DNA of 64,000 nt from Woeseiaceae bacterium (GTDB taxonomy: Bacteria; Pseudomonadota; Gammaproteobacteria; Steroidobacterales; Woeseiaceae), in the NCBI GenBank assembly GCA_021773075.1, contig JAJFKT010000012.1, positions 62,001 through 126,000 on the forward strand, read 5' to 3'. Below the pieces are notes generated by a model. The model searched no databases. It was given only the letters and a program-made list of their open reading frames with translations, and had not been told where the DNA came from. Shown one piece after another: positions 49,981 through 64,000 of the stretch. Position 1 is the first letter of the stretch; every line of letters begins with the position of its first letter. Both the position numbers and the translations under genes were made by a program.

Positions 49981-50033
49981 CGAATGTCTGCTTAAAGGAA
50001 ATCTAGATGTCGGAAAACGGCCAGAAGCCGACA
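49981..50033 (-). repeat. Array repeat E0, shortened terminal copy
   Basis: A 53-bp remnant of the array repeat. It keeps the stop-side arm (GTCGGCTTCTGGCCG on the minus strand) and the outer end of the promoter-side arm (AAGCAGACATTCG), but the centre with the inner hairpin and -10 hexamer is missing. It starts 9 nt after the stop of the HEAT-repeat gene, so it marks the end of the last unit. Beyond it (49767-49980) I see no further copy. Confidence 0.75.
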
Positions 50034-50042
50034 CACACCACG

Positions 50043-51833
50043 CTATTTCGATACACACTCAGCCATTCGGAAAGTCCCGATTTTGCTAACAATCACACTC
50101 CCACCGTCATAGGTATTGATCAATAGGTCACCACCTTCGATCAGCCACGAAGACATCGGAGCTGCCGGAAGGCGTTTCCATGGAACAACAGAAAATTCGC
50201 CCGGCTCTGTCTCATTAATCTGAAGGAGGTCTCCATTGTTCGAAAACATGTGGGCTAAGCCTGAAATGGCGACTAGCTGATCTCCAACCTTGAATATGTC
50301 TTCGATGTTTCCTTCATAGAGGACCGTACTGTTGCCGTCAGCGGAAACGTGAACCAATTCGCCGCCCCATTCGCCCCGATCTGCGCCGACAAGCCATCCG
50401 TCCGAAACTTTTAGGGCGAGGTCCGGAACCTGTTGAATCTGCTTGACAAACTCGACCATGTTGTCGTCTGTGACCTCTATTATTCCGTTTTCATTCGGCT
50501 CTGTCCCTTCTGGAGCACCGTACGAATAAATCGCAGAGTCATAGGCTAGTTGTTGCAACTTTGCCTCATCAGTCGCTGTGTAATATTTCGTGCCATCTGG
50601 TTCGTCTAAACTATCTTCCGCAATGGCGTCGCAGGATTTTGGACTGTCGTCAACGGTATTGATTTGCCACCACTCACTTTCAGCTAAAGGTGTTCCAGAC
50701 TGAATATTACGAAGCGCAGATTCGGCCATATCACTGACTGGCGGATACCAATGTGTCTCACGTACATGCTCTAAAGCAGCAACAAAATCCTCCGCACTCA
50801 AACGCGCCAAGGCAAGGCTTGCAGCATATACGAGCTTCCAGTCATCCTCGTCGGTCAACGCGTCGGCAAGTGCCGAAGCTGCAGGCGTGTAACCAATATG
50901 CCCCAATGCATCTGCCGCGTTTACACGGATGTCCCAGTTAAGGTCTTTTAGATAAGCAACGACCGCCGGGCCAGCCTCATATCCGTTTTCCCCTAGCCCC
51001 TTGATGTCGGACAACACATATTCAGCGTCGTAAGGAAGTGCCAGCAACAATGCAGATACCGCTTCAGATGAACCGATATTGACCAAGGATGAATCAACAT
51101 ATGCTGCAAGGAGCGGCTCATTCTTGCTGAGAGCAACCAATTCTGGAACGAATGCTTCGGCCCTGGTGCCTATTTGCCCAATGCCGATTATCGCGTACTG
51201 TCTACTAGCTAGCGCAAATTTATGATCCTTGGCAATTTCAAGCAGTCGAGGGATCACGGCAACCGCATCTTCCCCAATTTCATTCAACACGAAAGAGGCG
51301 GCATCAAACACTCGTTCGTTACAGTCGTCGGGGCATGCATACAGTTCTGCGACGTATGGAGCACCGTTTTCTCCAAGAATTTCGAATGCGTGTGTTACTT
51401 GCGTATGAGTACTCGGATCGTTGCGAAGATCGCTTACGAGGAACTCAATCGCCTCAATCGTCCCGATCCTTGCGATAGCAGGCGGTATCCATCCGTCTCC
51501 GTTCTGTCTTGCTCTTATTAATGCGTCCAGATGCTCGGGACCGAGGCCGTCAATATCTCGAATTGTGTATCCAGCAAGTTGCCGCACACCCTGATTCTCA
51601 TCTTCAAGGAGTTCTATCAGAAAGGGAATTGCTTCTGGGCCATAGCTCTGAACTTTGCGAGCCAGATCACCTTCGGTTTTCGTGATTCCTAGGCCACCCA
51701 CCGCTACCTCGGAATATTGCGCCGTGCAGGTTTCCAGTGTTTCGCACGCATGGACATCAGCCCCGCTGAGCAACATCACTGAAAAAAGTCCGATGATTCC
51801 GCAGCATCTTAACGGTCGAATCTCGTGAATCAA
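50043..51833 (-). CDS. Secreted HEAT-repeat protein
   Basis: 596 residues with a likely TTG start and an N-terminal signal peptide (about 1-29, ending VHACE). Residues about 55-375 form PBS/HEAT-like helical repeats (for example AIPFLIELLEDENQGVRQLA and DIRVNAADALGHIGYTPAAS), an expected protein-protein scaffold. The C-terminal 200 residues look like a beta-propeller fragment (WLVGADRGEWGGELVHVSAD). Function unknown. Its only plausible promoter is in the repeat at 51867, 33 nt upstream. Confidence 0.8.
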   Translation of the reverse strand: MIHEIRPLRCCGIIGLFSVMLLSGADVHACETLETCTAQYSEVAVGGLGITKTEGDLARKVQSYGPEAIPFLIELLEDENQGVRQLAGYTIRDIDGLGPEHLDALIRARQNGDGWIPPAIARIGTIEAIEFLVSDLRNDPSTHTQVTHAFEILGENGAPYVAELYACPDDCNERVFDAASFVLNEIGEDAVAVIPRLLEIAKDHKFALASRQYAIIGIGQIGTRAEAFVPELVALSKNEPLLAAYVDSSLVNIGSSEAVSALLLALPYDAEYVLSDIKGLGENGYEAGPAVVAYLKDLNWDIRVNAADALGHIGYTPAASALADALTDEDDWKLVYAASLALARLSAEDFVAALEHVRETHWYPPVSDMAESALRNIQSGTPLAESEWWQINTVDDSPKSCDAIAEDSLDEPDGTKYYTATDEAKLQQLAYDSAIYSYGAPEGTEPNENGIIEVTDDNMVEFVKQIQQVPDLALKVSDGWLVGADRGEWGGELVHVSADGNSTVLYEGNIEDIFKVGDQLVAISGLAHMFSNNGDLLQINETEPGEFSVVPWKRLPAAPMSSWLIEGGDLLINTYDGGSVIVSKIGTFRMAECVSK

Positions 51834-51866
51834 GATCGTGCGATCCTTTGCGATACGAATTTGGCT

Positions 51867-51990
51867 AGTGTCGCCTGTGGGTCACCAGCAGAAATTATAG
51901 CTTAACATTTGCGACCGGTTCCTTCCGAGCGCTAAGCAGCCGCCTGGCCATGAAGAGAGTGACCGACGCGGTTAGGCCAGGAACGGACGA
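51867..51990 (-). repeat. Array repeat E1
   Basis: 124-bp imperfect palindrome, subtype shared with the copy at 56203 (centre GGCTGCTTAGCG, AATGTTAAGCTATAATTTC). Minus-strand ends are CGTTCCTGGCC (stop side) and GGTGACCCACAGGCGAC. It begins 6 nt after the stop of the 51997 gene. A TATAAT hexamer is at 51894-51899, 27 nt from the promoter-side edge, pointing at the HEAT gene. Confidence 0.9.
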
Positions 51991-51996
51991 TCGCTT

Positions 51997-52227
51997 TCAC
52001 TCTTCGTAGATCGAGTTATAAGCCATCGAAGTTGCGACACCGACAATGTAACCAGCGGGTAATCCGAGTTCGACAGGCATTGGAGTTAGAGCACCAAGGA
52101 ATGCTCCGCCAAGCCTGAACAGTAGGCCACGTCGAAATGACCAGGAGCCGGCAAACCAGTGTCTAAATTGCCACCCGAACCAAACCAGAAAAGCAATTGC
52201 GACAGTTATTTTTAGCAATTCAGGCAT
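51997..52227 (-). CDS. Small membrane protein, cassette gene
   Basis: 76 residues, unrecognised. One N-terminal hydrophobic helix (LLKITVAIAFLVWFGWQF), a basic stretch (SWSFRRGLLFRLGG) and a second hydrophobic region rich in glycine (GAFLGALTPMPVELGLPAGY). Probably two membrane segments. The ATG is 17 nt beyond the repeat at 52245; the stop is 6 nt before the repeat at 51867. Confidence 0.65.
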   Translation of the reverse strand: MPELLKITVAIAFLVWFGWQFRHWFAGSWSFRRGLLFRLGGAFLGALTPMPVELGLPAGYIVGVATSMAYNSIYEE

Positions 52228-52244
52228 GACTTTCGACTTCTCTC

Positions 52245-52369
52245 GACTGGCTGCAATGGGTCACGAGCAGAAAGTTTACATGATTTTTCACGGCCGGCTG
52301 CAATGCGAAGTAAAGCAGCCTGTCGTTTTTCTTCCTGGCGAACTTCGGCACCCGGCCACTAGCGGCCGT
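52245..52369 (-). repeat. Array repeat E2
   Basis: 125-bp copy, same subtype as the one at 54132 (GCCGAAGTTCGCCAGGAAG ... AATCATGTAAACTTTCTGC on the minus strand). The inner stem CTGC/GCAG encloses TTTACTTCGCATT. The stop codon of the 52359 gene and its last residues (Gly-Arg) lie inside the repeat arm. The -10-like TAAACT is at 52273-52278. Confidence 0.9.
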
Positions 52370-52781
52370 AGTAGTCTTTGTGCTTTTCGCTTATCCAGTT
52401 GAGGAAATCTGGGTCATCAACATCTTCTGGTGCGGGCGACATCCGCACGCCCCAATCACGATTCTCCATTATCAATTCAACAACCAAGCTGTGCGAGCAG
52501 GCTTGATCTTGCTGCGCGAACATTGCGCCGGAAATTAGGCTTGTTGCCGCCCGTTCAGACACGCCAGAATTCGACAATAGCGGTTTCACGTCGGTAGTCG
52601 AACCGTTCGGTTGTATCGTGAATTGCACAACCACAATCCCCCATGCGTCTCGCCGAAATTCCACACTCGGGAACGGGACTTGCCGCTTCGCGACGATTTT
52701 TTCTTCTCTGTCACAGGTCGGTAGCGCCGCGTCTGGTGGCGGTGAGGTGATGAGTAACAAGGAAACCAATAGGTACGTCAT
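52359..52781 (-). CDS. Exported protein with TonB C-terminal-like domain
   Basis: 140 residues with an N-terminal signal (MTYLLVSLLLITSPPP, cleavage about ALP). The core VVVQFTIQPNGSTTDVKPLLSN with a later alpha-helix resembles the TonB C-terminal domain, without the N-terminal TonB anchor and proline region. Possibly a free periplasmic domain; role unknown. The last two residues and stop are encoded by the repeat at 52245. Confidence 0.7.
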   Translation of the reverse strand: MTYLLVSLLLITSPPPDAALPTCDREEKIVAKRQVPFPSVEFRRDAWGIVVVQFTIQPNGSTTDVKPLLSNSGVSERAATSLISGAMFAQQDQACSHSLVVELIMENRDWGVRMSPAPEDVDDPDFLNWISEKHKDYYGR

Positions 52782-52802
52782 CCGACAACAAAACTCGCTT
52801 AC

Positions 52803-52930
52803 GTGAGCGGCTCCTTTGGGTCACCAACAGCCTGCCAGCATCGTACCACGCTGACTTCTGCTTTCGAACGCTTACCAGCCTGTCGCTCTGTGAATACGCT
52901 AACTTCTCAGTTCGGCCAAAACCGGACACG
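52803..52930 (-). repeat. Array repeat E3
   Basis: 128-bp copy. The stop-side half (TTTTGGCCGAACTGAGAAGTT) matches the copy at 55456, whereas the promoter-side half (TTCGAAAGCAGAAGTC, GGTACGATG) matches the copy at 62621, so it looks mosaic. It begins 22 nt after the stop of the SnoaL-like gene. The -10-like TACGAT is at 52840-52845. Confidence 0.88.
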
Positions 52931-52952
52931 TCAGGCCTAGCGAGGTACTTGG

Positions 52953-53324
52953 CTATCTGGATGCTCTCGGTAATTCACCGAAAAAGCCTATTACGCAAAC
53001 AATGCGCCCTGAAGAGTCTGTCTCCACGACATCGAATCCCGGTAATACAAGTTCGCCGTCGTTATTGTGTATAGCCCAGTGATAACGATGAAATCCGTGT
53101 TGAGAGTCTACTTTGCTAGTTCGCGAGTAGACGTTACCAGGGTTCTTGGCATGCACTTCGTAAACATTGGCTTCAAACGCATCAATTCCAGTCACATCAA
53201 TAGACGGGTCAACAAAGCGAACTTGCGGCGCTAGCGCCCTCCTAAGGTGTGACGGAACGAGTGAGGCATCTGACTCATTCCAGGCAGCTAGCATGTGATC
53301 GAAAGATTCCGGGTAATCGGACAT
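52953..53324 (-). CDS. SnoaL/NTF2-like protein, cassette gene
   Basis: 123 residues from the ATG at 53324, which follows GGAGTTTACA; an upstream in-frame start at 53372 has no ribosome site. The sequence (SFDHMLAAWNESDASLV ... VRFVDPSIDVTGIDAFEANV ... GFDVVETDSSGRIVCVIGFF) fits the cone-shaped SnoaL/NTF2 fold of isomerases and polyketide cyclases. Cytosolic. No specific substrate can be named. Confidence 0.78.
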   Translation of the reverse strand: MSDYPESFDHMLAAWNESDASLVPSHLRRALAPQVRFVDPSIDVTGIDAFEANVYEVHAKNPGNVYSRTSKVDSQHGFHRYHWAIHNNDGELVLPGFDVVETDSSGRIVCVIGFFGELPRASR

Positions 53325-53387
53325 TGTAAACTCCGTTTGCCTGATATGAAGTAAACCGACCTCCGAGCGCAATATTCATGCCACGCG

Positions 53388-53511
53388 CATGTCTGCTCTG
53401 GGTCATCTGCAGAAATTATAACTCAAGATGAGCGTCCGGCTGCTATGCGAAGTAAAGCAGCCCGTCGCGCTGCGAACACTCGAACTTCTCGGTTCGGCCA
53501 GAAGCGGTCAC
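53388..53511 (-). repeat. Array repeat E4
   Basis: 124-bp copy, same subtype as 55456. Minus-strand ends CGCTTCTGGCCGAACCGAGAA and GATGACCCAGAGCAGACAT. Inner stem CTGC/GCAG present. It starts 7 nt after the stop of the 53519 gene. Perfect TATAAT at 53415-53420, 27 nt from the promoter-side edge. Confidence 0.91.
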
Positions 53512-53518
53512 TGCGACA

Positions 53519-54067
53519 TCAATCAGGCCTTACAAGTTTTGCCAAATCGCATCCCGTTACGCTCTTTAGGCCAATCGATATTGCCCTTTTACCGTCCTCG
53601 CTCAGCCCCAATTTGTATAACGGACTGGTTTCTCCATTATGCAGGTGCATATGTACGTCTGTGCCGTCATCAAATCCCGCCCACGCGACATAGTCGTGAG
53701 AGTCTTCACCATGCTTGTCATCGATTTTATAAAATTCGTCATCCCAGCGTTCGGCGGCCGTATCATCAATTTCGCGTTCAATTTCGCGGAAGTCACCAGA
53801 AATGATGGCTATATGCACTCCAAACACTATGCCGTCTGGCCGAACGTAGAAAAACAGCTCATTGAAGTTCGCACCAAAAGTTTCGCCCAGATGATCGACC
53901 CATAGAACGCCGTAGTCACCGTGGTAAATTGCGCTGGGAAATTGCTCGAGTACGTCACCAACAGATGCTTCACAAAATTCAATTCCCATCCAAGTGAATT
54001 GTTCTTCGTTCGCAGCGAATCCGAAATTGGCAGCTAAGATTAGTAAGATGAGAGCGGACTGTCGCAT
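53519..54067 (-). CDS. Exported hypothetical protein, cassette gene
   Basis: 182 residues from the ATG at 54067, which follows GGAGTTTCAC. Signal peptide MRQSALILLILAANFGFAAN. The mature part (EQFTWMGIEFCEASVGDVLE ... YGVLWVDHLGETFGANFNEL) is not a family I recognise; it contains repeated VSVGD-like and beta-rich stretches. Periplasmic. Lies between repeats 53388 and 54132. Confidence 0.68.
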   Translation of the reverse strand: MRQSALILLILAANFGFAANEEQFTWMGIEFCEASVGDVLEQFPSAIYHGDYGVLWVDHLGETFGANFNELFFYVRPDGIVFGVHIAIISGDFREIEREIDDTAAERWDDEFYKIDDKHGEDSHDYVAWAGFDDGTDVHMHLHNGETSPLYKLGLSEDGKRAISIGLKSVTGCDLAKLVRPD

Positions 54068-54131
54068 GTGAAACTCCACTGATTTCGCATTCAATACTGG
54101 TTGGACATATCCATTCAGACAAAATGCACGC

Positions 54132-54258
54132 TAATGTCCGCTTTGGGTCAGCAGCAGAAAGTTTACATGATTTTTCGTGACCGGCTGCAATGCGAAGTAA
54201 AGCAGACCGTCGTTTTTCTTCCTGGCGAACTTCGGCAGTCGGCCACAAGCAGACGCTC
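54132..54258 (-). repeat. Array repeat E5
   Basis: 127-bp copy, same subtype as 52245. Outer arms on the minus strand are GAGCGTCTGCTTGTGGCC and CTGACCCAAAGCGGACATTA, which pair imperfectly; inner arms GACGGTCTGC and GCAGCCGGTC pair around TTTACTTCGCATT. It starts 12 nt after the threonine synthase-like stop. The -10-like TAAACT is at 54160-54165. Confidence 0.92.
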
Positions 54259-54270
54259 ATACGAGTCAAT

Positions 54271-55395
54271 TTATCTCCCAAGATTGTCTTCGTAAAACTG
54301 CGTCGTCTTTAGACCCGTACCGGTCAGAATTACAACAGTACGTTCGGATGGATTGATTGTTCCGGACTCAATCAGCTTGCCCACCGCTGCCGCCGCGTGG
54401 GCGGAGGTTGGTTCGGCATACAGGCCTTGTCGCGCCAATCTCAAGCTCGCCTCAATAATTTCGGTTTCATCAACGGCGACAGTTCCACCGCCGCTTTCCC
54501 TGAGAGCGTTGAGCATCTCTATCAAACGAATTGGGCGCTTTATGGCAGTGCCTTCCGCCACGGTGGGTAGAAAGTCGCTGTCAACAAGATTGTCAGCGCC
54601 AGCTTGAAAGCTCGCGTGAAGCGGAGCGCAGTTCGCTGGTTGAGAAGCGAATAGCTTAGGCAGCTTGTCGATTTCGCCTGAAGACTTCAGCTCAGTGAAC
54701 GCAATATGACAGCCCAAAAGATTGCTACCGGCAGACGAAGGGATGAGGATGTTATCGGGTGCTCGAAAGCCGCAGTCCTCCCAAAGTTCGTATCCCAGAG
54801 TTTTCGTACCTTGAAGGAAAAACGGATGCCAGTTGTGGCTCGCGTAGAAAACATCTGATGATTGCTCAATTGCAGCGGCTTCTGTCGCCTCGCGTGGGCC
54901 AGGTATCAACTCCACTTCAGCGCCATATGCTCTAACCTGGGCTATTTTGGCGGGTGAGGTGGACGCGGGAACGAGCACTTTCACTTGCATACCGCCCGCA
55001 GCTCCGTATCCGGCAACAGACGATCCGCCGTTACCTGAGCTGTCTTCCAATACTGATTGGATTCCTTGCTGCCTCAACAAAGACAGCATGACCGACGTGC
55101 CGCGGTCTTTGAAGGACCCTGTGGGCGAGAACCATTCGAGCTTGAACAGACATGACGCGCCGCAGTAATTGGCACCAACAAGTGGTGAGCAGCCCTCTCC
55201 CATTGAGATAGGTTCGCGGACATCCAGCGGAAACGCCTTGCGATACCTCCAAATCGAACGAGTCGAGGTGACGATGTCCTTTCGCCGGATTCCCTGAAGC
55301 TGCGAGAGCATCAAGGGATTGCCATTCGGCGAACGCCAGATTGGTGTGTCTATCGAATACTCTTCATCGGTACGTGGATCGACATAACTAACCAA
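54271..55395 (-). CDS. Threonine synthase-like PLP enzyme, cassette gene
   Basis: 374 residues with a TTG start after GGGGGG. Fold-type II PLP enzyme. The Schiff-base lysine is K96 in PTGSFKDRGTS, the phosphate loop is SSGNGGSSVAGYGA, and the C-terminus has VVILTGTGLKTTQF, all as in threonine synthase. The N-terminal zinc-like cysteines of some relatives are missing. It may be a second threonine synthase or a beta-eliminating relative. A metabolic enzyme is unusual cargo for such an array. Framed by repeats 54132 and 55456. Confidence 0.85.
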   Translation of the reverse strand: MVSYVDPRTDEEYSIDTPIWRSPNGNPLMLSQLQGIRRKDIVTSTRSIWRYRKAFPLDVREPISMGEGCSPLVGANYCGASCLFKLEWFSPTGSFKDRGTSVMLSLLRQQGIQSVLEDSSGNGGSSVAGYGAAGGMQVKVLVPASTSPAKIAQVRAYGAEVELIPGPREATEAAAIEQSSDVFYASHNWHPFFLQGTKTLGYELWEDCGFRAPDNILIPSSAGSNLLGCHIAFTELKSSGEIDKLPKLFASQPANCAPLHASFQAGADNLVDSDFLPTVAEGTAIKRPIRLIEMLNALRESGGGTVAVDETEIIEASLRLARQGLYAEPTSAHAAAAVGKLIESGTINPSERTVVILTGTGLKTTQFYEDNLGR

Positions 55396-55582: not shown

Positions 55583-55590
55583 AAGACGGT

Positions 55591-56175
55591 TCATCGAGGG
55601 GCCATATTCTTATCGATACATGTATGAAACATGGCTTCCCAGATGTGAAAGTCCTGGGCACCAGACGGGTAAATTGTTGACAGCCGTTCATCGCCGTTCG
55701 CGAGTCGGACTACCACATCCACCCGCTCGTTTGCCCGGAATTTGCTAAGCAACGTCGAGCTCGCCTCCTCATCTAACCGGAATATGTATACGCCATATCT
55801 TGGATCTCTCGGCTGCTGAAGCTCGAAATCACCAATCTTTGCGGATACGACTCGACCTGTTGGAGGTGGCAGTTTGTTGCTTACACTATAAATATAGAAC
55901 TGAAATTTGATCCTAGAAAGTTCCGATTCAGGGTATAGGTTGACATGTGTGTCCGTTAGCGCGATGAAGTTTACGAAAGCCTTTTTGTAACCCGTATTCG
56001 CCAGAAAACCTTGTCGTTCGCTATCCGCTTTGTAATCAAGTTTGAGCTCACAATACGTGTTCCAAACATTCGCATCCCATCCATATGACCACTCGAGAGG
56101 TGTATCACTTGCGTCAGCTGAAATGTGAGCCAAGAGTAGGGATGCGATCAGCAGAGTTGCCGGCTTGTTAGACAT
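55591..56175 (-). CDS. Exported hypothetical protein, cassette gene
   Basis: 194 residues. Signal peptide about 1-22 (NKPATLLIASLLLAHISADA). The mature part begins TPLEWSYGWDANVWNTYCEL and is beta-rich, with two cysteines; I do not recognise a family. Ribosome site GGTGAGC before the ATG, which is 27 nt beyond repeat 56203. Confidence 0.68.
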   Translation of the reverse strand: MSNKPATLLIASLLLAHISADASDTPLEWSYGWDANVWNTYCELKLDYKADSERQGFLANTGYKKAFVNFIALTDTHVNLYPESELSRIKFQFYIYSVSNKLPPPTGRVVSAKIGDFELQQPRDPRYGVYIFRLDEEASSTLLSKFRANERVDVVVRLANGDERLSTIYPSGAQDFHIWEAMFHTCIDKNMAPR

Positions 56176-56202: not shown

Positions 56203-56326
56203 GAATGGCTGCTGTGGGTCACCTGCAGAAATTATAGCTTAACATTTGCGACCGGCTCCTTCCGAACGCTAAGCAGCCTCCTGGCCGTGAAGAGGGTGAC
56301 TGACGCGGTTCGGCCACTTACGGTCA
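56203..56326 (-). repeat. Array repeat E7
   Basis: 124-bp copy, same subtype as 51867 (AACCGCGTCAGTCACCCTCT on the minus strand). The TGA stop of the SRPBCC gene overlaps its stop-side end. TATAAT at 56231-56236, 28 nt from the promoter-side edge. Confidence 0.91.
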
Positions 56327-56866
56327 CTGAGATTCGGCCAGCTCCCGCAACCTTCCTAGAAACCTGTTCTCCCACATCGCTCTCGTACGTTCGTTAAATT
56401 CCTGCGACTCTCGCACGGCTTTTTGCGGATTATCACCGGTGCCGTCCCATGTGTACCTACGGCTCATGATAACCCTAACGGTGGTTATTCCTTCGACCTC
56501 ATCCAAGGTGACTACTGCAACACCCGTCGACGATTCTCCATTAAACGTTACAGGTAGATTTGAGATAACAAGTAAATCGTCTGGTATTGTTTTTGTGATC
56601 TGAATTAAAAAGTCTTGCCCCTCATAGAGTCTACGAACTTCGCCCTCTTGATTCGGCGTGCCAGATACTAGGGCCATCTCAAATTCGTACATCCACGAGG
56701 AAATGTCAATTAAGTGCGCCCAAACAGTATCGGCCGATGCGCCTATCTCAACTGTGTACTGCGAAACGTAGCTGTAAGAATTTCCGTCAGGTTCTGCGGT
56801 AATCGTGTCAGATGCTGTTGCGCAGGAAGCGATCAGCAACGTCGCCAAGCAAATTATCGACTTCAT
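56324..56866 (-). CDS. SRPBCC-domain lipoprotein, cassette gene
   Basis: 180 residues from the ATG at 56866 (ribosome site GGAGC). The lipobox LIASC gives C15. The body (YTVEIGASADTVWAHLIDISSWMYEFEMA ends about residue 66) is the start of a START/SRPBCC fold with a hydrophobic ligand pocket. A ligand cannot be named. The stop lies inside repeat 56203; the next repeat upstream is at 56896. Confidence 0.75.
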   Translation of the reverse strand: MKSIICLATLLIASCATASDTITAEPDGNSYSYVSQYTVEIGASADTVWAHLIDISSWMYEFEMALVSGTPNQEGEVRRLYEGQDFLIQITKTIPDDLLVISNLPVTFNGESSTGVAVVTLDEVEGITTVRVIMSRRYTWDGTGDNPQKAVRESQEFNERTRAMWENRFLGRLRELAESQ

Positions 56867-56895
56867 CCAAAGTGCTCCTATACATCTTCTGTGCA

Positions 56896-57021
56896 CGAAC
56901 TTCTGCTTTGGGTCACCAGCAAAAAGTTTACATGATTTCTCGCGACCGGCTGCAATCCGAAGTAGAGCAGACTATTTAATTCTGAACATCCTTATTTCTG
57001 AGTTCGGCCAGAAGCAGTCAC
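56896..57021 (-). repeat. Array repeat E8
   Basis: 126-bp mosaic copy. The stop-side half (GCTTCTGGCCGAACTCAGAA) is of the 53388/55456 subtype; the promoter-side half (GAAATCATGTAAACTTT) is of the 52245/54132 subtype. It starts 25 nt after the last gene of the arsenic operon. The -10-like TAAACT is at 56925-56930. Confidence 0.9.
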
Positions 57022-57046: not shown

Positions 57047-57277
57047 TCAGCCCAGGTATTTCTTGAGTTTCTCCGCACTGGGTACAGTGCCTTCGATCAC
57101 AATATCGTCATTCACAGCCAATGCAGGGGTGCGCATCACGCCCGCGTCGATGATGGTATTCATGTCAGTCACTTTCTCAATGTCGTAACTGATTCCCAGT
57201 TCCTGCGCTGCCGCTTCGGCGTGTTGTGTCAGTAGGTTGCACTTGCTGCAACCGCTGCCGTAGATTTTCAGTTTCAC
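57047..57277 (-). CDS. Thioredoxin-fold redox protein of the ars operon
   Basis: 76 residues. Starts MKLKIYGSGCSKCNLL with the CxxC pair C10/C13, typical of the small 'redox-active disulfide' thioredoxin family often next to ArsP-type permeases. Possibly supplies electrons or carries arsenic thiolates; inference only. Last gene of the five-gene ars unit. Confidence 0.88.
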   Translation of the reverse strand: MKLKIYGSGCSKCNLLTQHAEAAAQELGISYDIEKVTDMNTIIDAGVMRTPALAVNDDIVIEGTVPSAEKLKKYLG

Positions 57278-57299: not shown

Positions 57300-58619
57300 T
57301 CAGAAGAAATTTCCGTATGCATAGCCCGTAATCGTTGCCATCACCACAACGAGCGCGCAATAGACCACGGTCTTTTCGGTTCCAAGAATCGAACGTATTA
57401 CCAGCATGTTGGGGAGTGACAACGCTGGGCCTGCCAATAACAAAGCCAGCGCTGGTCCCTTGCCCATGCCGGCACCCAATAAGCCCTCGACGATGGGAAC
57501 CTCAGTCAAAGTCGAGAAATACATAAATGCACCCAGCACCGATGCCACGACCGTAGAGATCAGGGAGTTGTCCCCGACCGCCATACTCACCCATTGCGAC
57601 GGGATCAATCCCTCGAAGCCCGGTCGGCCCAAGAGAAGTCCGGCAACAAAAACACCGCCCAGAAGCAAGGGCATGATCTGCTTCGTAAAGCTCCAGGTTT
57701 CGGCTGCCCACTCCTGGTCGCGCTCACGTGTTGCGGCGATCAGCATCACACCCAACGCACCGATCACGAACGGAAATTCCGGTGTGCCGGGAAGTACCAG
57801 GGCACCGAGCAAAATAAGACCCGCGAGAATCAATAGATGCCTGGCAGGCCATTGCCAACGGAAAATCAGCAATCCTGCGAACAGGATCGCCAGCGATGAA
57901 GTGATTTGCCATTTCCACTCATAAACACGCATCCAGGCTGAGCTGTCGACGGCTGCCCAGTTGGCGAAAACCAGGATGCCTATCATCAGAGAAAAGAAAG
58001 CCACGACTGTCCCTAGCGGCTTCTCCACCTCATCGGCCTCGAATCCGCGAGCGGCGACCTGCGCTCGTTCGCGCTCTTCCTTTCGGTAAAGCAGGTGCAT
58101 GATCATGCCAATCACCAGGGCAAATACGATGGCGCCCACCACACGGGCAAGGCCCAGCTCGGCGCCCAGGACTTTCGCGGTGACAACGATTGCCATGATA
58201 TTGATCGCGGGACCGGAGTAGAGGAACGCCGTCGCTGCTCCCAATCCAGCTCCGCGTTTGTAAATACCGCCGAAGAGCGGCAAGACGGTGCAAGAACATA
58301 CGGCAAGCAACGTGCCGGAGACCGATGCCACGCTAAGGGCAATGGGCTTTGACGCCTGCGGTCCGAGAAATCGCAAGACCGATCCCTGGGTAATGTACAA
58401 CGCCATTGCCCCGGCAATAATGAACGCGGGCAGCAGGCACAGAATGACATGCTCGCGTGCATACCAATTAGTCAGGCGTATCCCTTCGAGAACCGCATTA
58501 TCAAAGCGGGCAGTTCCTGCAGGAATAAAGTAGATAAGCAGAAACAGGCTCACGAACAAGAGCAGCAGATAGCTCTGTCCCCGGTTCTCCCGGTACAGCA
58601 ATTTCAGGTTATCAAACAC
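57300..58619 (-). CDS. ArsP/DUF318-type permease of the ars operon
   Basis: 439 residues with about ten membrane helices. Near residue 106 lies LAVCSCTVLPLFGGIYKRGA, the cysteine-containing motif of UPF0718 permeases; members such as ArsP export organoarsenicals. A cytoplasmic loop is near residue 180-200. Neighbouring acr3, arsC and arsR make an arsenic role likely. Symbol left blank because UPF0718 members vary. Confidence 0.87.
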   Translation of the reverse strand: MFDNLKLLYRENRGQSYLLLLFVSLFLLIYFIPAGTARFDNAVLEGIRLTNWYAREHVILCLLPAFIIAGAMALYITQGSVLRFLGPQASKPIALSVASVSGTLLAVCSCTVLPLFGGIYKRGAGLGAATAFLYSGPAINIMAIVVTAKVLGAELGLARVVGAIVFALVIGMIMHLLYRKEERERAQVAARGFEADEVEKPLGTVVAFFSLMIGILVFANWAAVDSSAWMRVYEWKWQITSSLAILFAGLLIFRWQWPARHLLILAGLILLGALVLPGTPEFPFVIGALGVMLIAATRERDQEWAAETWSFTKQIMPLLLGGVFVAGLLLGRPGFEGLIPSQWVSMAVGDNSLISTVVASVLGAFMYFSTLTEVPIVEGLLGAGMGKGPALALLLAGPALSLPNMLVIRSILGTEKTVVYCALVVVMATITGYAYGNFF

Positions 58620-58638
58620 GTTCTTATTTTCGTTTCGC

Positions 58639-59856
58639 CTAGATTTCCGCTACCGCGGACTGCTCCCGGGGGAACCAGTGTTGCGTCCGCAAACAAAACC
58701 TCACCAACATCAACATAAGTGGCACTTCGATCAACACGCCAACCACCGTTGCGAGCGCCGCGCCCGATGACAATCCGTACAACATTGCCGCCGTCGCGAT
58801 CGCCACTTCAAAGTGGTTGGACGCACCAATCATTGCCGTCGGTGCAGCATTCTCATAGGTTAAGCCCAATAACTTGGCCAACGCATATCCCAAGGCAAAT
58901 ATCAGCACCGTCTGGACAAACAACGGGACAGCAATCCATAGAATGGTCAGTGGGTTTTGAATGATCGTCTCGCCTTTGAATGAAAAGAGCAGGACCAGTG
59001 TGACAAGCAGTGCTGTGATCGTGACCGGCGTTAAGTAGTGTAGAAACGTCTCCTTAAACCACGGTTCTCCTTTTGCCGCGATGATCCACTTGCGAGAGGC
59101 ATAACCGGCAACCAGCGGAAGCGCAACATAGATACCGATCGACAACAATAGGGCCTGCCACGGCACCGGTAACTGACCTACACCCAGTAAGAAGCCACCA
59201 AAAAACCCAAACAGAACCAACATGGTCAGTGAATTGATCGCCACCATCACCAGCGTATGCCCGTCATTGCCTTTCGAGAGATAGCCCCATACCAGAACCA
59301 TCGCCGTACAAGGTGCGATCCCAAGGAGAATGCAGCCTGCGAGGTAGCTGCGCCAAAGCGGTACCTCCAGCATCTTGACGCCATCGACGAGCACCACCTG
59401 ACCGGCACCGTAGGTGTCGCCAACCGACATGCCGGCGCCGAGTGGCATCTTCACCAGGTCAACCGCCTCTGGGCCTATGAAATTGAGAAACAACGTGCCG
59501 AGGAAGAAGCTCGAGATCGCATACATCGTGAATGGTTTGATGGCCCAGTTAATGAAGAGCGTCAAGCCCACCGGGCGCATGGCTTTGCCTGCCTTTACCA
59601 CCTCGTGAAAATCGATCTTGACCATAATTGGATACATCATGAAAAACAGACACAACGCAATGGGAATGGAAATTACCGGTGCGTCGTTAACGGTAATGGC
59701 CATACCGTCAAGCGTTTGGGCAATCTCTGGAGCCACTTTCCCAAGCAAAATCCCAACGCCGATGCTTAGCCCAACCCAAACCGTCAAATAGCGTTCAAAA
59801 AATGGCATATCCGCACCGCCAGCTCGTTTGCTGGGCGTTTCGCATTGAGCGCTCAC
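58639..59856 (-). CDS. acr3: Acr3 arsenite efflux transporter
   Basis: 405-residue inner-membrane arsenite exporter of the ACR3 (BASS) family, ten predicted helices. [20 protein letters not shown] at the N-terminus and [20 protein letters not shown] are typical, and the conserved cysteine lies in [13 protein letters not shown] near residue 180. Start overlaps the arsC stop by 4 nt. Confidence 0.94.
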
Positions 59857-60290
59857 TGCTCTTCTCCTTGAGTTAGTTCTGCGAGCAAACCACGGACTCG
59901 TGATTCGACCTCGTCACGCGTCGCCCTGAACTCGCTCAGAATCTCCTCTTCGGAACCCGTGGCTTTGGCCGGGTCAGTCAGCGGCCAGTGCACCTTCTTT
60001 ACATTCGGGGGTAGTACAGGACACTGTTCGTCAGCATGCCCGCACACCGTAACTACGATATCGGCCTTCTGCAGCATGTCGTCGCTGACGATGGTCGATT
60101 CCTGCCCCGAGATATCGATGCCGATTTCCTTCATCACCTCGATCGCCCTGGGGTTCTTGCCGTGCGCCTCGATACCGGCTGACTGTACTTCGACATGATC
60201 GCTGCCGACGTGTCGTGCCCAACCTTCGGCAATTTGGGAGCGGCAGGAATTTCCCGTACACAGGAAAAGTATGTTCAATGATTCAGGCAC
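59853..60290 (-). CDS. arsC: ArsC, thioredoxin-coupled arsenate reductase (LMW-PTP fold)
   Basis: 145 residues. The phosphatase-like loop is C11-TGNS-C16-R17 ([19 protein letters not shown]), and the C-terminal redox cysteine is in [15 protein letters not shown]. This is the LMW-PTP class, reducing arsenate to arsenite for Acr3. Overlaps the arsR stop by 8 nt. Confidence 0.94.
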
Positions 60291-60630
60291 ATTCCCTGTC
60301 CGGGCGATTATTCATTCGAGCCAGCTGCTGCCGGTCCTTTTGATACGGTTTTAGTTCGTGCAGCCGATCGTGTGTCTCTGCGATGATCTCCCTTCCCCAT
60401 TCGGGGAGCGTGGGCTCAATTCGATAGTGCATCCAGGTACCTTCTCGTCGCGATTGCACTATTCCCGCATCCCGCATCAATGCCAGATGGCGGGAAATCT
60501 TGGGCTGTGATTCGTTCAGAGCAAAGGTCAGCTCGCACACACACACTTCGCCCTCAGACTGAATGAGCATCAGCGCTCTCAGGCGAGTGGCGTCGGAAAG
60601 AATGTTGAACAGTAATTCGGGCTTCATCAT
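60283..60630 (-). CDS. arsR: ArsR, arsenic-responsive repressor
   Basis: 115-residue winged-helix repressor. The arsenite/metalloid site is CVC (C30, C32) in [13 protein letters not shown], followed by the recognition helix [16 protein letters not shown]. First gene of arsR-arsC-acr3-permease-trx. The ATG is doubled (MM), and the exact start is uncertain. It has its own promoter region, unlike the other cassettes. Confidence 0.93.
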
Positions 60631-60640
60631 GGGGGCGACG

Positions 60641-60680
60641 ATATATGGGATTACATATATATGTCAGTCCGTATATACCA
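60641..60680 (-). promoter_or_regulatory. Candidate ArsR operator/promoter region
   Basis: AT-rich segment just before arsR with a perfect 12-bp palindrome, ACATATATATGT at 60653-60664, flanked by two further ATATA blocks (about 60641 and 60672). ArsR/SmtB repressors bind this kind of interrupted palindrome. I cannot assign -35/-10 positions with confidence. Confidence 0.55.
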
Positions 60681-60823
60681 CGATGGTTTCCGTATTGTCC
60701 GAATGGACCTTCGCGCACATGAAAAACGGCTTGTGGGAGACCATCAGCTAACGGACAAATTGGAACGAACCGGAAATCGAAAGCGATCGCAGGCGTCCAT
60801 CGAACTCTATGTGCTGCAGATGT
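60681..60823. other. Non-coding stretch upstream of the ars operator
   Basis: Together with the operator this makes a 193-nt gap between arsR and repeat 60824, three times longer than any other repeat-to-gene gap in the array. I see no gene or clear signal. It may be residual DNA brought along with the arsenic operon. Confidence 0.4.
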
Positions 60824-60950
60824 GAATGACCGCTTTGGGTCACGAGCAGAAATTATAACCCAAGAAAAGCGACCGACTGCTAAGCGAAGTGAACCAGTCG
60901 TTCGTTAAGTTCCCTGGCGGCCGACGGCAGCCGGCCAAGAGCAGACGGTC
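60824..60950 (-). repeat. Array repeat E9
   Basis: 127-bp copy. Minus-strand ends GACCGTCTGCTCTTGGCCGG and CGTGACCCAAAGCGGTCATT; centre GACTGGTTCACTTCGCTTAG. It starts 1 nt after the stop of the 60952 gene. TATAAT at 60852-60857. Confidence 0.91.
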
Positions 60951-60951
60951 G

Positions 60952-61434
60952 TCACTGTTCTTTGCAATCGAGAATGGCAACGACAGATACAGCCGGGTAG
61001 TTATCAAGTTCGAACTCAAGACCGTCGTTAACAAACGACTTAAGTAGGGCTACATACTCGTTATCGTCATCAAAGATTCCGATGGATCGAGTAGCCCCGC
61101 ATGTAGTTACAGTGCCGTCATTGGTGAATACGATCAGTTTGTAACCAACCAAAAACGGGATTCCGCAGTCTCCACCGCCGAAACCGCTGTATAAAAGATC
61201 TAGATCGTGCGGCGCACCTTTGATGATATCGACAACCTCAAAGTCAGCACTAACGCTGTTCCATGTACTGTCAGCGTCTGAATTCTTCTGAGCGGACGTT
61301 ATCTCCGCAATGAAAATGTACTGCGATTCACTTACGGCTTCCTCGATGCTGTTGCTGCCGCAACTGCAAGCAACGGCGTCAGACGAGACAAAAGCGACAA
61401 AAAATGCAATCGCAAAAGTTAGATTTCGAGTCAT
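60952..61434 (-). CDS. Secreted TIMP/netrin-like cysteine-rich protein, cassette gene
   Basis: 160 residues; the ATG follows AGGTGATTTC. Signal peptide to VACS; the mature N-terminus begins near CSCGSNSIEEAV. Then EYIF-type strand (YIFIAEITSAQ), VVDIIKG and a late FTNDGTVTTCGATR follow the order of bacterial TIMP/NTR-like OB folds, which start with a Cys-x-Cys. Function unknown; protease inhibition is only an analogy. Confidence 0.72.
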   Translation of the reverse strand: MTRNLTFAIAFFVAFVSSDAVACSCGSNSIEEAVSESQYIFIAEITSAQKNSDADSTWNSVSADFEVVDIIKGAPHDLDLLYSGFGGGDCGIPFLVGYKLIVFTNDGTVTTCGATRSIGIFDDDNEYVALLKSFVNDGLEFELDNYPAVSVVAILDCKEQ

Positions 61435-61472
61435 GAAATCACCTCAGGTTTGGCTTCCCCGCCAAGATTCTT

Positions 61473-61599
61473 GAACGACTGTTTTGGGTCACAGGCAGAA
61501 ATAATAACCCATGAAACGCGACCGGCTGCTTTCGAAACTATAGCGGAAGTCGGCCTGCAACCTGGGCGACCGACGCAGAGCGGCCACAAGCAGCCGGTG
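61473..61599 (-). repeat. Array repeat E10
   Basis: 127-bp copy. Minus-strand ends CACCGGCTGCTTGTGGCCG and TGTGACCCAAAACAGTCGTT. The inner hairpin has diverged but keeps AAGCAGCCGGTCGC. It starts 6 nt after the stop of the 61606 gene. The -10-like TATTAT is at 61501-61506. Confidence 0.88.
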
Positions 61600-61605
61600 C
61601 ATCTT

Positions 61606-62085
61606 TCAGTCGAGGGTCGCCGGGCAATTTGCCATTCGCGCCTCGAACCCCTGTAAGACTGCGGCGAAATTTGACATCCACTCCGGCACTTGGTTTACAG
61701 AGCGACATGATTCATCGGTCGTATAACGAAATGTCCGCCGTTGGTGCTCAGAGATAACTGTGACCATATTTTCAGACTCGTCGTCACAATGATCGTGCTG
61801 CCACAGCATACTATCCGCTGGCAGAGCGCCAACCATACGATCGACAAGCGCTGAAATGGTGTCGACCTCTTCCACGGTCAGCACCACCTCAGGGCAGAAC
61901 ACGGGCTCGACACAACGACTATCGTCGCAGATGGCAGATTGCCCATCCGACGAGATGAGGATTCTATCCCCAGAACCCCAGCCACTGACCTTTTGGTATT
62001 CAACAGACCAGTTCTCAGTGTCGCCTGCAACAGCGGCGCTTGCTAGCGCAAACAGGATCAGGGCTCTAACTCGCTTCGCTTGCAT
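61606..62085 (-). CDS. Exported hypothetical protein, cassette gene
   Basis: 159 residues from the ATG at 62085 (GAGGG upstream); a longer in-frame reading to 62157 would run into repeat 62138. Signal peptide MQAKRVRALILFALASAAVA. Four to five cysteines (CDDSRCVEPVFCPEV ... HDHCDDESENM) suggest disulfides. No family recognised. Confidence 0.66.
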   Translation of the reverse strand: MQAKRVRALILFALASAAVAGDTENWSVEYQKVSGWGSGDRILISSDGQSAICDDSRCVEPVFCPEVVLTVEEVDTISALVDRMVGALPADSMLWQHDHCDDESENMVTVISEHQRRTFRYTTDESCRSVNQVPEWMSNFAAVLQGFEARMANCPATLD

Positions 62086-62137
62086 CACAAATGCACCCTC
62101 TGCCACGAATTGGATTGTCAAAACTGCCAGAATCGAC

Positions 62138-62256
62138 GAACGACTCCCTTGGGTCAACAGCAGAAATTATAGCCCAAGAAAAGCGGCCGGCTGCAATGCG
62201 AAGTAGAGCAGCCCGTCGTTCTGGGAATCATCAAACTTTTCGGCCGTTAGCGGTCC
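62138..62256 (-). repeat. Array repeat E11
   Basis: 119-bp copy, the shortest full one. Minus-strand ends ACCGCTAACGGCCGAAAAG and GTTGACCCAAGGGAGTCGTT; inner stem CTGC/GCAG around TCTACTTCGCATT. The TAA stop of the 62247 gene is inside the repeat. TATAAT at 62166-62171. Confidence 0.9.
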
Positions 62257-62552
62257 AGCCGGATTGATGGGTTGCCCTCCGATTCCTCAAGTGGTTCGTA
62301 GGCGACCGATGCGAGCTTCCCGTTTTCAAATGTCAATACTTTGCGACGTACTTGGTTGATGGTTGACCACATTCCAATGGCGACAATCTCCGTTTCCGAT
62401 TGGGTAACAATCTCGTCGCCAGCCCGCTCAACGACTTTCAATGCAACAGGTTGAGACATGCCATATCGCAGGCCATCCATTCCGGTGGTTGTTGTAAGAC
62501 CGCACCCAAAAACAAATAATGACATTAACGCTAGAGCTAGGGCACGTTTCAT
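62247..62552 (-). CDS. Small lipoprotein, BamE/SmpA-like, cassette gene
   Basis: 101 residues from the ATG after AGGAGTGACTTTTG. The lipobox VFGC gives C17. The body (GLRYGMSQPVALKVVERAGD ... RKVLTFENGKLASVAY) has the layout of the SmpA/BamE fold: a GMS-type helix start, then strands ending in FENGKL. Not the main BamE, which is longer conserved; a relative. The stop is inside repeat 62138. Confidence 0.7.
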   Translation of the reverse strand: MKRALALALMSLFVFGCGLTTTTGMDGLRYGMSQPVALKVVERAGDEIVTQSETEIVAIGMWSTINQVRRKVLTFENGKLASVAYEPLEESEGNPSIRLDR

Positions 62553-62620
62553 CAAAAGTCACTCCTGTAATTTCAAAATTCTTGGGGACATGAATTGTCG
62601 TCCCGGTATTTGTTTCTGGC

Positions 62621-62746
62621 GAACGGCCCGTATGGGTCAACGGCAGCACGTCAACATCGTATCACGTGGACTTCTGCTTTCGAGCGCTAACCAGTCGCTC
62701 GGTCTCCGCTTGCGCGAACTACTCAGTTCGGCCAAGAGCGAAAGTG
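62621..62746 (-). repeat. Array repeat E12
   Basis: 126-bp copy related to 52803 and 63209 (minus strand: ACTGGTTAGCGCTCGAAAGC). Ends CGCTCTTGGCCGAACTGAG and GTTGACCCATACGGGCCGTT. It starts 10 nt after the stop of the 62757 gene. The -10-like TACGAT is at 62656-62661, 35 nt from the promoter-side edge. Confidence 0.88.
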
Positions 62747-62756
62747 CTATTTAGAA

Positions 62757-63161
62757 TTACCACCTGATATTGATGTCTTCGGTGCGATTCTTGATATAGA
62801 AATAAAGCGCGATACCAACAACCGCAAACATCATGCCGACCAATGCGAGGACGACGACGTCTGCATATTGAAAGACCCCCTTTTTGGCTAGAAATGCCGT
62901 TGCCACAGTCAAAAAAACAATGAGAGCTACCCAAAACATCTGCCACTTGCTCTTGGACATTTCTCCTTCTTCGACGTCGTCAGAGCCGCCCCAGGGAAGT
63001 GTCCCGAACAACGCAGCGTAGATAAATACGAATCCGCCGAGCAAGCTGCTGATGAAAGTGAAGTCGACCTCTACTCCGCCTTTCGCAATAGCGTTGAAAG
63101 CTATTGCAGCGACGCCGCCGAATCCCAGAAATCCGCAGACAGCTCGAGTTATTGGTGACAT
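62757..63161 (-). CDS. Four-helix membrane protein, cassette gene
   Basis: 134 residues. Four predicted membrane helices in two pairs (about 7-25, 32-52, 73-92, 100-123) separated by an acidic loop (GGSDDVEEGEMSKSK). Ribosome site AAGGATC before the ATG. No family recognised. Framed by repeats 62621 and 63209. Confidence 0.7.
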   Translation of the reverse strand: MSPITRAVCGFLGFGGVAAIAFNAIAKGGVEVDFTFISSLLGGFVFIYAALFGTLPWGGSDDVEEGEMSKSKWQMFWVALIVFLTVATAFLAKKGVFQYADVVVLALVGMMFAVVGIALYFYIKNRTEDINIRW

Positions 63162-63208
63162 CTGAATACTTGATCCTTAAATCTATTTGCGGCTTTGGCA
63201 ATGCGGCC

Positions 63209-63332
63209 GAACGACCGCAATGGGTCAAATTTTGTCGTCCGCCATGTTATCACCTAAACGACTGCTTCCGCGCGCTTTCCAGCCAGTCGAAAAAAATGGC
63301 TACTGACTCGGTGCGGCCACTACCGACCATTC
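63209..63332 (-). repeat. Array repeat E13
   Basis: 124-bp copy, the most diverged of the 52803/62621 subtype. Minus-strand ends GAATGGTCGGTAGTGGCCG and TTTGACCCATTGCGGTCGTT. It starts 6 nt after the stop of the last gene. The -10-like TAACAT is at 63244-63249. Confidence 0.87.
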
Positions 63333-63338
63333 ACACAC

Positions 63339-64000
63339 TCACATTTTGCCCATTTCTTTTTGGCGTTCCATCACGCCATGCAACCACTCTTCGATTTCGG
63401 GAATGATCACCTCAAGTCCGACGACTCCCTCGTACGTTTTGCTTAATTTCCCAAAGTAACCGCGCAGAGTGCTGGTCACCTGACCATTGCGAGAGCGTAT
63501 GTATACAGACCAACTCGGCGTTGCATCACCGTCCAATTCGGCCGCGAACTGGTAGAGAATTTGAGAACAGAGTTCGGCGTCAGTGCAGATTCTGTCAATT
63601 GGATTGGGGCTCCTGCGAATCTGGTAGGTAATTCCGTGTGCCGAGCGTTTCTCGATTGTGGCCGACTCATCCAAGTCCACTAGGGGATGATTCGGATTCT
63701 CGCCATCCGACCAGTCGTCCACTAAATCGAACCAGATTCCTCTCGCGAGCACTTCCACAAACTCATCGTGAAACGATAAGACATAGTGGCTGAATTCGCT
63801 CACCATCTCGCGAACATCCTGCCCCCAGTCATACGATGACCCGTAGTGGTTCCGCTCGTACTCGTAGCGCTCAAGCAGCCACGCGGAATTTTCGACGATT
63901 GACACCCACTTGAATCTTGTCTGCTGCTCTGGGTTTTCTGGCACAGGTGGGTACTCGCCACGAGACACTCGAAGTGAGTCGAGCTTCTCAAACGTTACAC
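63339..64000 (-). CDS. Hypothetical protein, 5' end beyond window
   Basis: The frame is open from the stop at 63339 to the window edge (VTFEKLDSLRVSRGEYPPVP near the edge), so the gene probably starts outside; a GTG at 63968 is an alternative start giving 209 residues. No signal peptide is visible in the part seen. It is acidic and aromatic-rich (SYDWGQDVREMVSEFSHYVL), soluble, and not a family I recognise. Confidence 0.65.
   Translation of the reverse strand, partial: VTFEKLDSLRVSRGEYPPVPENPEQQTRFKWVSIVENSAWLLERYEYERNHYGSSYDWGQDVREMVSEFSHYVLSFHDEFVEVLARGIWFDLVDDWSDGENPNHPLVDLDESATIEKRSAHGITYQIRRSPNPIDRICTDAELCSQILYQFAAELDGDATPSWSVYIRSRNGQVTSTLRGYFGKLSKTYEGVVGLEVIIPEIEEWLHGVMERQKEMGKM

What the first reader, a model, noticed from the sequence alone, without database searches (positions are those of the whole stretch)
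49981..64000. One-direction gene-plus-repeat cassette array without attC core sites or a visible integrase
Fourteen copies of an imperfect palindrome (thirteen of 119-128 bp, one of 53 bp) alternate with genes over 14 kb. All 18 genes lie on the minus strand, and each repeat follows one gene's stop codon. No copy was found in the first 49.9 kb. This is the layout of an integron cassette array (gene then 3' recombination site). However, attC hallmarks (RYYYAAC ... GTTRRRY) are missing at the ends; instead the outer arms are of the form CGTCTGCTTcTGGCC and TGACCCAAAGCGGACATTC. Either a distinct recombinase family recognises this repeat, or another process inserts genes next to it. Repeats with similar arms may be dispersed in other proteobacterial genomes; I recall short predicted ORFs of the MSALGQ type in such annotations, which would arise from the promoter-side arm.
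Basis: partly seen in the sequence, partly recalled or inferred. Interest (0 to 1): 0.93.

Follow-up and report, generated by a model that had tools for sequence, protein, structure and literature searches.

The report
Second integron-like gene cassette system
This stretch is part of a long one-way array in which genes alternate with one ~127-base palindromic repeat; it fails the tests for integrons, and a very small DNA-cutting recombinase that sits beside such arrays in other bacteria is likely what shuffles the genes, so bacteria may own a second, overlooked platform for collecting genes.

Summary
Thirteen full copies (122-127 bp) and one degraded copy lie after stop codons at window 49939-63332, all on the genes' strand. 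The array runs on to C4:137286; the genome has at least 55 copies, 48 in nine clusters, none of mixed direction. attC boxes are absent (0 of 13), while the same genome holds an ordinary IntI/attC integron elsewhere. The repeat is a fixed train of dyad sites (GNCYGCT-N10/11-AGCRGNC), not one conserved hairpin. DNA shared between arrays of different species often starts or stops at these sites (42 of 102 ends; 8.7 expected), single genes recur without neighbours, and one relative has the flanking genes 20 bp apart. This genome lacks a fitting recombinase, but relatives and other phyla carry a 208-aa, catalytic-domain-only tyrosine recombinase bounded by such sites. In a single-contig genome of the same class, two arrays each carry it at one end, with genes radiating from a central inverted site pair. 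Best reading: non-integron gene-cassette arrays worked by this recombinase family. Recombination is untested; recombinase and repeat rarely co-occur in a class-wide sample (1 of 229).

The parts
   Evidence: profile match 18-19 bits, strand ambiguous; stop of next gene 6 bp away
51865..51991 (-). element 1
   Evidence: model R1, 104.7 bits
52244..52370 (-). element 2
   Evidence: 117.7 bits
52804..52930 (-). element 3
   Evidence: 105.6 bits
53386..53512 (-). element 4
   Evidence: 128.2 bits
54131..54257 (-). element 5
   Evidence: 122.5 bits
55455..55581 (-). element 6
   Evidence: 127.3 bits
56202..56328 (-). element 7
   Evidence: 114.9 bits
56896..57022 (-). element 8
   Evidence: 114.4 bits
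60823..60949 (-). element 9
   Evidence: 111.9 bits
61472..61598 (-). element 10
   Evidence: 106.9 bits
62137..62258 (-). element 11
   Evidence: 106.3 bits
62620..62746 (-). element 12
   Evidence: 102.1 bits
63208..63331 (-). element 13
   Evidence: 80.3 bits
50043..51833 (-). array gene, HEAT-repeat protein
   Evidence: PF13646 1.1e-20
51997..52227 (-). array gene, no Pfam family
52359..52781 (-). array gene, weak TonB_C match
   Evidence: below cut-off
52953..53372 (-). array gene, weak SnoaL-like match
   Evidence: below cut-off
53519..54094 (-). array gene, no Pfam family
54271..55395 (-). array gene, PLP-dependent enzyme
   Evidence: PF00291 4.2e-68
55591..56175 (-). array gene, no Pfam; homologue in a G033 array
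56324..56896 (-). array gene, no Pfam; homologue in a G010 array, all four alignment ends in elements
57047..57277 (-). thioredoxin-like gene of a five-gene arsenic-type unit
   Evidence: PF13192 2.1e-24
57300..58619 (-). ArsP-type permease, same unit
   Evidence: PF03773 1.5e-70
58639..59856 (-). SBF-family (Acr3-like, recalled) transporter, same unit
   Evidence: PF01758 9.6e-37
59853..60290 (-). LMWP-fold protein (arsenate-reductase-like, recalled), same unit
   Evidence: PF01451 3.9e-23
60283..60630 (-). ArsR-family regulator, same unit
   Evidence: PF01022 1.3e-13
60952..61434 (-). array gene, no Pfam; homologue in a G002 array, all four alignment ends in elements
61606..62157 (-). array gene, no Pfam family
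62247..62555 (-). array gene, no Pfam family
62757..63161 (-). array gene, no Pfam family
63339..63998 (-). array gene, no Pfam family, runs to the window edge
49191..49766 (-). left flanking gene (not part of the array); its orthologue is 20 bp from that of the right flanking gene in relative G016

Best explanation
The window holds part of what is likely a gene-cassette array of a non-integron kind: one-way genes or small operons, each followed by a train of short dyad sites, which are likely cut and rejoined by a family of 208-residue tyrosine recombinases that consist of little more than the catalytic domain. Shown here: the sites, their place after stop codons, their shared direction within this genome's clusters, homologous DNA that often starts or stops at the sites between species, an occupied and an empty locus, and the recombinase gene bounded by the same kind of site in relatives and at one end of arrays on an unbroken contig. 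Inferred: recombinase protomers bind the arms (GNCYGCT / AGCRGNC) of a site and exchange strands in its 6-7 bp centre (TGGCCG, TGACCC or TTGCGCCG-like); the centre is asymmetric, which would fix the direction of insertion. Recombination between two sites of the same direction would free gene plus site as a circle, which would re-enter at another site. In the unbroken arrays genes radiate from a central inverted site pair with an AT-rich core, which would be the entry point and promoter. In this genome the recombinase is absent from the assembly, so the array is either a relic or served from elsewhere, like clusters of attC sites without integrase (CALIN).
For: At least 55 copies in the genome at E<=0.01 (150 of 822 candidates were scored), 48 in 9 clusters, no cluster of mixed direction (random placement: 6.75 clustered on average, at most 21 in 1000 trials). 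14 of 14 window copies start within -12..+24 bp of a stop. 69 array loci compared: 27 alignments between different genomes, 42 of 102 tested ends within 25 bp of an element, random placement 8.7 on average, at most 18 in 300 (element profile built from the copies in these loci). Of 31 array genes (18 in the window, 13 beyond), 4 have close relatives (69-83% over 130 aa or more) in the fetched loci, each in a different genome and without the neighbours. Empty locus: flanking genes 20 bp apart in G016, 36 kb apart here, with an element at either end of the insert. Recombinase: R-K-H-R-H-Y residues invariant in 22 aligned members; only PF00589, residues 41-192 of 208. Arrays on both sides of it in L161, mainly on one side in L154. 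In single-contig genome G102, 48 matches of a site pattern (read off its two arrays) against 0 for the reversed pattern; 25 of 48 within 10 kb of the two recombinase genes (1.7% of the genome), 11 of 11 minus left and 14 of 14 plus right of the two central modules; these modules are identical at 95 of 111 positions, flanks at 101 of 205 and 97 of 194. In 25 recombinase loci outside a Woeseiaceae-like set of 6, sites are denser within 300 bp upstream or 200 bp downstream of the gene than elsewhere: 10 in 12.0 kb against 21 in 207 kb at 16 of 19 positions, 5 against 14 at 17, 2 against 11 at 18. A recombinase unit shared by two loci (L159, L165; 87%) runs from site to site within about 6 bp.
Against: No recombinase of this family in the window's genome; 4 of 37 genomes of its genus, own included, carry one, plus a fragment in a fifth, while all 37 have at least one match to the repeat. 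In a sample of 229 genomes of the class, 8 have the recombinase, 11 the repeat and 1 both. Only 9 of the 25 outside recombinase loci have a site at 16 of 19 next to the gene. 60 of 102 alignment ends do not fall at elements. Of 352 elements scored, 98 have no same-strand stop within 150 bp and 62 have an opposite-strand nearest upstream ORF (ORFs by a simple rule); 25 of 270 neighbouring pairs switch direction. The last ~10 kb of the 36-kb insert (C4:137.3-147.7 kb) has mixed-strand genes and no clear element, and the element at its right end is a weak model match (E 0.045). In the window type the first site has a clear left half only. In six plasmid regions the recombinase stands beside ordinary cargo; sites were not scanned there. 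No recombination assay, no circular intermediate.
Confidence: 0.7

Rival explanations
1. The repeats are mobile miniature elements (REPIN- or MITE-like) of the small recombinase that insert just behind stop codons; the genes never move.
For: The recombinase unit is itself bounded by the sites, so the 127-bp element could be its deletion derivative; 7 of 55 copies stand alone.
Against: Miniature elements should lie in both directions; here none of 9 clusters is mixed. Whole inter-site segments are shared between species without their neighbours.
Confidence: 0.1
2. Gene turnover by RecA between repeated sequences; the sites are incidental.
For: Copies in this array are 60-90% alike; no recombinase of the family in this genome.
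Against: Mean column identity of the 13 copies is 69%, poor for RecA (established knowledge); what is alike are sites at fixed spacing, and two unbroken arrays carry their own recombinase.
Confidence: 0.08
3. The cell's XerC/XerD act on the sites, as on the dif modules of Acinetobacter plasmids.
For: Dyad sites with short asymmetric centres and single-gene modules resemble dif modules (abstract of PMC6449649 seen); the genome has two ~300-aa tyrosine recombinases that I take for XerC/XerD (names recalled).
Against: The arms look unlike dif (dif recalled, no pattern searched), and a separate recombinase family goes with the arrays.
Confidence: 0.06
4. A degenerate integron array worked by the IntI of the same genome.
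For: The genome has a full IntI (438 bits, cut-off 265) with an attC array on C27; one gene is found in both kinds of array (L035:17146-17392 and L070:10225-10471, 75%).
Against: Both attC boxes in 0 of 13 copies, while 40 kb of C27 gives 7 matches of the attC pattern; no conserved fold.
Confidence: 0.04

Closest known systems
[quoted passage not shown]
   Same: Arrays of mostly one-way genes, each followed by a recombination-site-like repeat; a tyrosine recombinase gene at the array; arrays without integrase are common (CALIN; passages of PMC9024848 seen).
   Different: No attC boxes or conserved fold; recombinase scores 19.5 bits on the IntI model against a cut-off of 265; the two unbroken arrays run both ways from a central inverted site pair.
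dif (pdif) modules of Acinetobacter plasmids
   Same: Single genes bounded by short dyad sites, spread between replicons (abstract of PMC6449649 seen).
   Different: dif modules use the host XerC/XerD; here a separate recombinase goes with arrays; long chromosomal arrays of one direction; site sequence looks different (dif recalled).
Simple tyrosine recombinases (Xer, IntI, TnpA and so on)
   Same: PF00589 with the full catalytic set.
   Different: Simple recombinases usually have a core-binding plus a catalytic domain (passages of PMC8138268 seen); this family has only about 40 residues before the catalytic domain. The FimB/FimE-type invertase model scores 30 bits, cut-off 222; those enzymes are of like size but invert DNA (recalled).
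REP/BIME/REPIN repeats with RAYT
   Same: Short palindromes between genes.
   Different: Clustered in one direction with turnover of whole genes; the linked enzyme is a tyrosine recombinase, not a Y1 transposase (features of REPIN recalled).

Membership tests
Integron | IntI-type integrase at the array | tested here: not met
   The IntI of this genome lies on another contig with its own attC array; the recombinase of the arrays scores 19.5 bits, cut-off 265
Integron | attC sites with RYYYAAC and GTTRRRY boxes | tested here: not met
   0 of 13 copies with both boxes; 7 pattern matches in 40 kb of C27 as control
Integron | site conserved in secondary structure | tested here: not met
   RNAalifold -0.35 kcal/mol, 5 pairs, none compensatory, 13 copies
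Integron | array of gene plus downstream site in one direction | tested here: met
Integron | integrase-driven excision and insertion of single cassettes | not testable with these tools
   only indirect: shared units and empty locus
dif modules | XerC/XerD sites at both ends of each module | not tested
   dif sequence only recalled; no dif pattern was searched
REPIN/RAYT | dispersed copies in both directions with a Y1 transposase | tested here: not met
   48 of 55 copies in 9 single-direction clusters; no Y1 family in 30 of the 31 array genes scanned; the rest of the genome was not searched for Y1
Tyrosine recombinase superfamily | PF00589 with R-K-H-R-H-Y | tested here: met
Tyrosine recombinase superfamily, simple group | core-binding domain before the catalytic domain | tested here: inconclusive
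   no core-binding Pfam match and only ~40 residues before the catalytic domain; the structure job had not returned

The most novel reading that the evidence does not exclude
Bacteria have a second, independent gene-capture platform beside integrons: bidirectional cassette arrays built on short asymmetric dyad sites and run by a family of catalytic-domain-only tyrosine recombinases found across Proteobacteria, Nitrospinota and plasmids.
Probability: 0.55. Interest if true: 0.93.

Novelty: categorically new. Interest (0 to 1): 0.86.

Why it matters
Integrons are treated as the one dedicated gene-cassette platform of bacteria. A second one, with a recombinase about a third shorter, short dyad sites and arrays that can run both ways, would give a home to many unplaced small genes of environmental genomes and to short spurious ORFs of the MSALGQ type, would add an unscreened route of gene spread (398 plasmid records hold a relative of the recombinase at E<=1e-30), and could be a compact new tool for DNA insertion. 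It is directly testable with two sites and one 208-residue protein.

Tried and rejected
The 127-bp repeat as one hairpin: no support. Integron variant: failed the box test. Search for the recombinase in the window's own genome: IntI and other tyrosine recombinases, none of this family. A tyrosine recombinase 3 kb from a single copy (C24:25009-26409, 466 aa): looks phage-type, beside genes I take for IS genes (recalled), set aside. Class-wide co-occurrence of repeat and recombinase: weak, 1 of 229 with both. Genus of G102: none of the other 4 genomes has the recombinase, so no strain comparison was possible. The alignment of window 56150-57100 with L139 was made in the wrong direction and is not used; the BLAST match is. 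Literature: ten searches (for such arrays, repeats or enzymes; for dif modules) listed nothing that describes such arrays; preprints and most subscription papers are not held, so absence from print is not shown. In one search the script stopped with an error after the counts that I cite; it was not repeated.
Full report
1. The observation. The window is C4:62001-126000 of a 4.09-Mb, 37-contig genome. Thirteen copies of 122-127 bp and one degraded copy lie on the minus strand between 49939 and 63332; the model finds none before 51865. All 14 begin within -12..+24 bp of the stop codon of a minus-strand gene, and in 10 of 13 cases the next gene begins 13-64 bp behind the element (the others -21, -1 and 192). 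A model of the 13 copies finds 55 distinct copies at E<=0.01 in the genome (150 of 822 candidates scored): 23 in one minus-strand run, C4:113865-137286, and smaller runs on C2, C4, C20, C23, C24, C29 and C35; 48 lie in nine clusters and no cluster mixes directions.

2. What the repeat is. It is not a conserved hairpin. In gene sense it is a train at fixed spacing: a half-site GNCYGCTTNTGGCC at the gene's stop (P1), a full dyad such as GGCTGCTTTACTTCGCATAGCAGCC at positions 50-75 (P2), and a 3' site with TGACCC 20 nt from the end...TGACCCAAAGCRGNC (P3); all 13 copies show the three blocks in register, two of them 3 and 5 nt shorter. In relatives the same blocks appear as cleaner dyads GAAYGNCYGCT-N10/11-AGCRGNCRTTC, by eye two per element in the 88-100-bp forms and three in the 135-140-bp forms. 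A -10-like hexamer TANANT stands in the 29 bases before P3 in 146 of the 262 elements (of 416) in which the P3 pattern was found, against 8.3% in shuffles, so each element may carry a promoter for the next gene; untested.

3. The units turn over. All 37 genomes of the genus (own included) have at least one match to the repeat, and 5 of 23 from other families of the order do (E<=0.001). Among 69 array loci, alignments between different genomes (27; 250 bp or more, 72% or more) have 42 of 102 ends within 25 bp of an element, against 8.7 expected and 18 at most in 300 random placements. One 447-bp match of 97% between G015 and G002 starts in the right arm of a 3' site and runs to a contig end. 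Window genes 55591, 56324 and 60952 and the gene at C4:126273 each have a close relative in an array of a different genome, without their neighbours; weaker matches are the transporter and reductase of the arsenic-type unit in L159 (40-42%), the IS110 gene and one beta-lactamase-fold gene (25%); the other 23 of 31 have none in the fetched loci. In G016 the orthologues of the left flanking gene (window 49191-49766) and of the right one (C4:147918-149285) are 20 bp apart; here 36 kb lie between them, with an element at either end of the insert, the right one a weak model match (E 0.045) whose dyads are plain in the sequence (by their sequence I take the genes for a Lon-substrate-domain gene and mpl, recalled). 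About 10 kb of that insert (C4:137.3-147.7 kb) has no clear element. G016 carries its own small array on the other side of the left gene.

4. A recombinase. None lies in this genome's arrays. But in G027 and G016 a 208-aa tyrosine recombinase sits inside an array near a contig end, and relatives are found in 45 loci of named genomes, 32 of them matched over 166 residues or more (a scan with six peptide patterns), 398 plasmid records (E<=1e-30) and at least 8000 protein clusters (capped). It matches PF00589 over residues 41-192 only and no NCBIfam model above its cut-off; R59, K87, H156, R159, H182 and Y191 are invariant in 22 aligned members. On a 747-kb contig (L161) genes run away from it on both sides, most followed by a site pair; in L154 one such gene lies to its left and a run of them to its right. 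In 25 loci outside that group, sites are denser next to the gene than further off: 8-fold, 6-fold and 3-fold at thresholds 16, 17 and 18 of 19; 9 of the 25 loci have one at 16. In two MAG loci deposited as Nitrospirota (L159) and Nitrospinaceae (L165) 768 bp, from site to site, are 87% identical and the match goes no further.

5. Unbroken arrays. G102, an unnamed single-contig genome (2.40 Mb) of the same class but another order, has two recombinases, 76% identical, each at one end of an array. Array A has minus-strand genes left and plus-strand genes right of a ~110-bp module made of two inverted P3-like sites around an AT-rich core; 16 sites with a TTGCGCCG-like centre lie -2 to +61 bp from a same-strand stop, several overlapping it, while four weak matches inside the array do not. 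The module is alike in arrays A and B (95 of 111; flanks about half). Over the genome the site pattern has 48 matches, the reversed control 0; 25 lie within 10 kb of the two recombinases, split by direction at the modules, 11 minus and 14 plus. The other 23 include runs near 561-566 kb and 1469-1483 kb without this recombinase and scattered weak matches.

6. Interpretation and limits. Together this supports a gene-cassette system worked by the small recombinase, with the central P3 pair as the likely entry point and the site behind each gene as the cassette end. Against it stand the absence of the recombinase here and from 32 of 37 genomes of the genus (a fragment counted as present), the weak co-occurrence in the class (1 of 229 with both), the alignment ends that miss elements (60 of 102), the 98 of 352 elements without a same-strand stop within 150 bp and the 25 of 270 direction switches, and the lack of any experiment. 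The window array would be the counterpart of a CALIN.

7. Known systems. It works like an integron but fails its tests (no attC boxes, no conserved fold, no IntI), and the same genome has a true integron on C27. dif modules are the other close analogue; their sites are those of XerC/XerD. Ten literature searches listed no description of such arrays (calls under Tried and rejected). I rate it categorically new because recombinase family, sites and array layout all differ from each known cassette system that I compared; a reader who counts every recombinase-shuffled cassette array as one kind would call it a new variant.

Noticed in passing
L035 (G000:C27:60001-80000), IntI C27:71704-72642 -: A complete ordinary chromosomal integron with ~97-bp attC sites in the same genome.
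   Followed up: partly
L035:17146-17392 and L070:10225-10471: One gene (75% DNA identity) occurs both in the attC integron and in an array of the new kind, so genes may pass between the two platforms.
   Followed up: partly
C4:128809-130224 (L031:3309-4724 -): IS110-family transposase gene inside the main array; whether it targets the repeat was not checked.
   Followed up: no
window 57047-60630; L159:2503-3935: A five-gene arsenic-type operon is a single unit of the array; in L159 two arsenic-type genes (40-42% identity) follow the recombinase unit.
   Followed up: partly
L192-L197 (plasmids): On plasmids the recombinase stands near varied cargo: catalase katG, a phosphite ptxD operon, copper genes, cobalamin genes.
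   Followed up: partly
G016:C14 (L129:4620-10935): A small array of the same kind lies one gene away from the site of this window's array, in another species of the genus.
   Followed up: partly
window 7196-7559 -: Bacterial RNase P class A RNA.
   Followed up: no
   Followed up: yes
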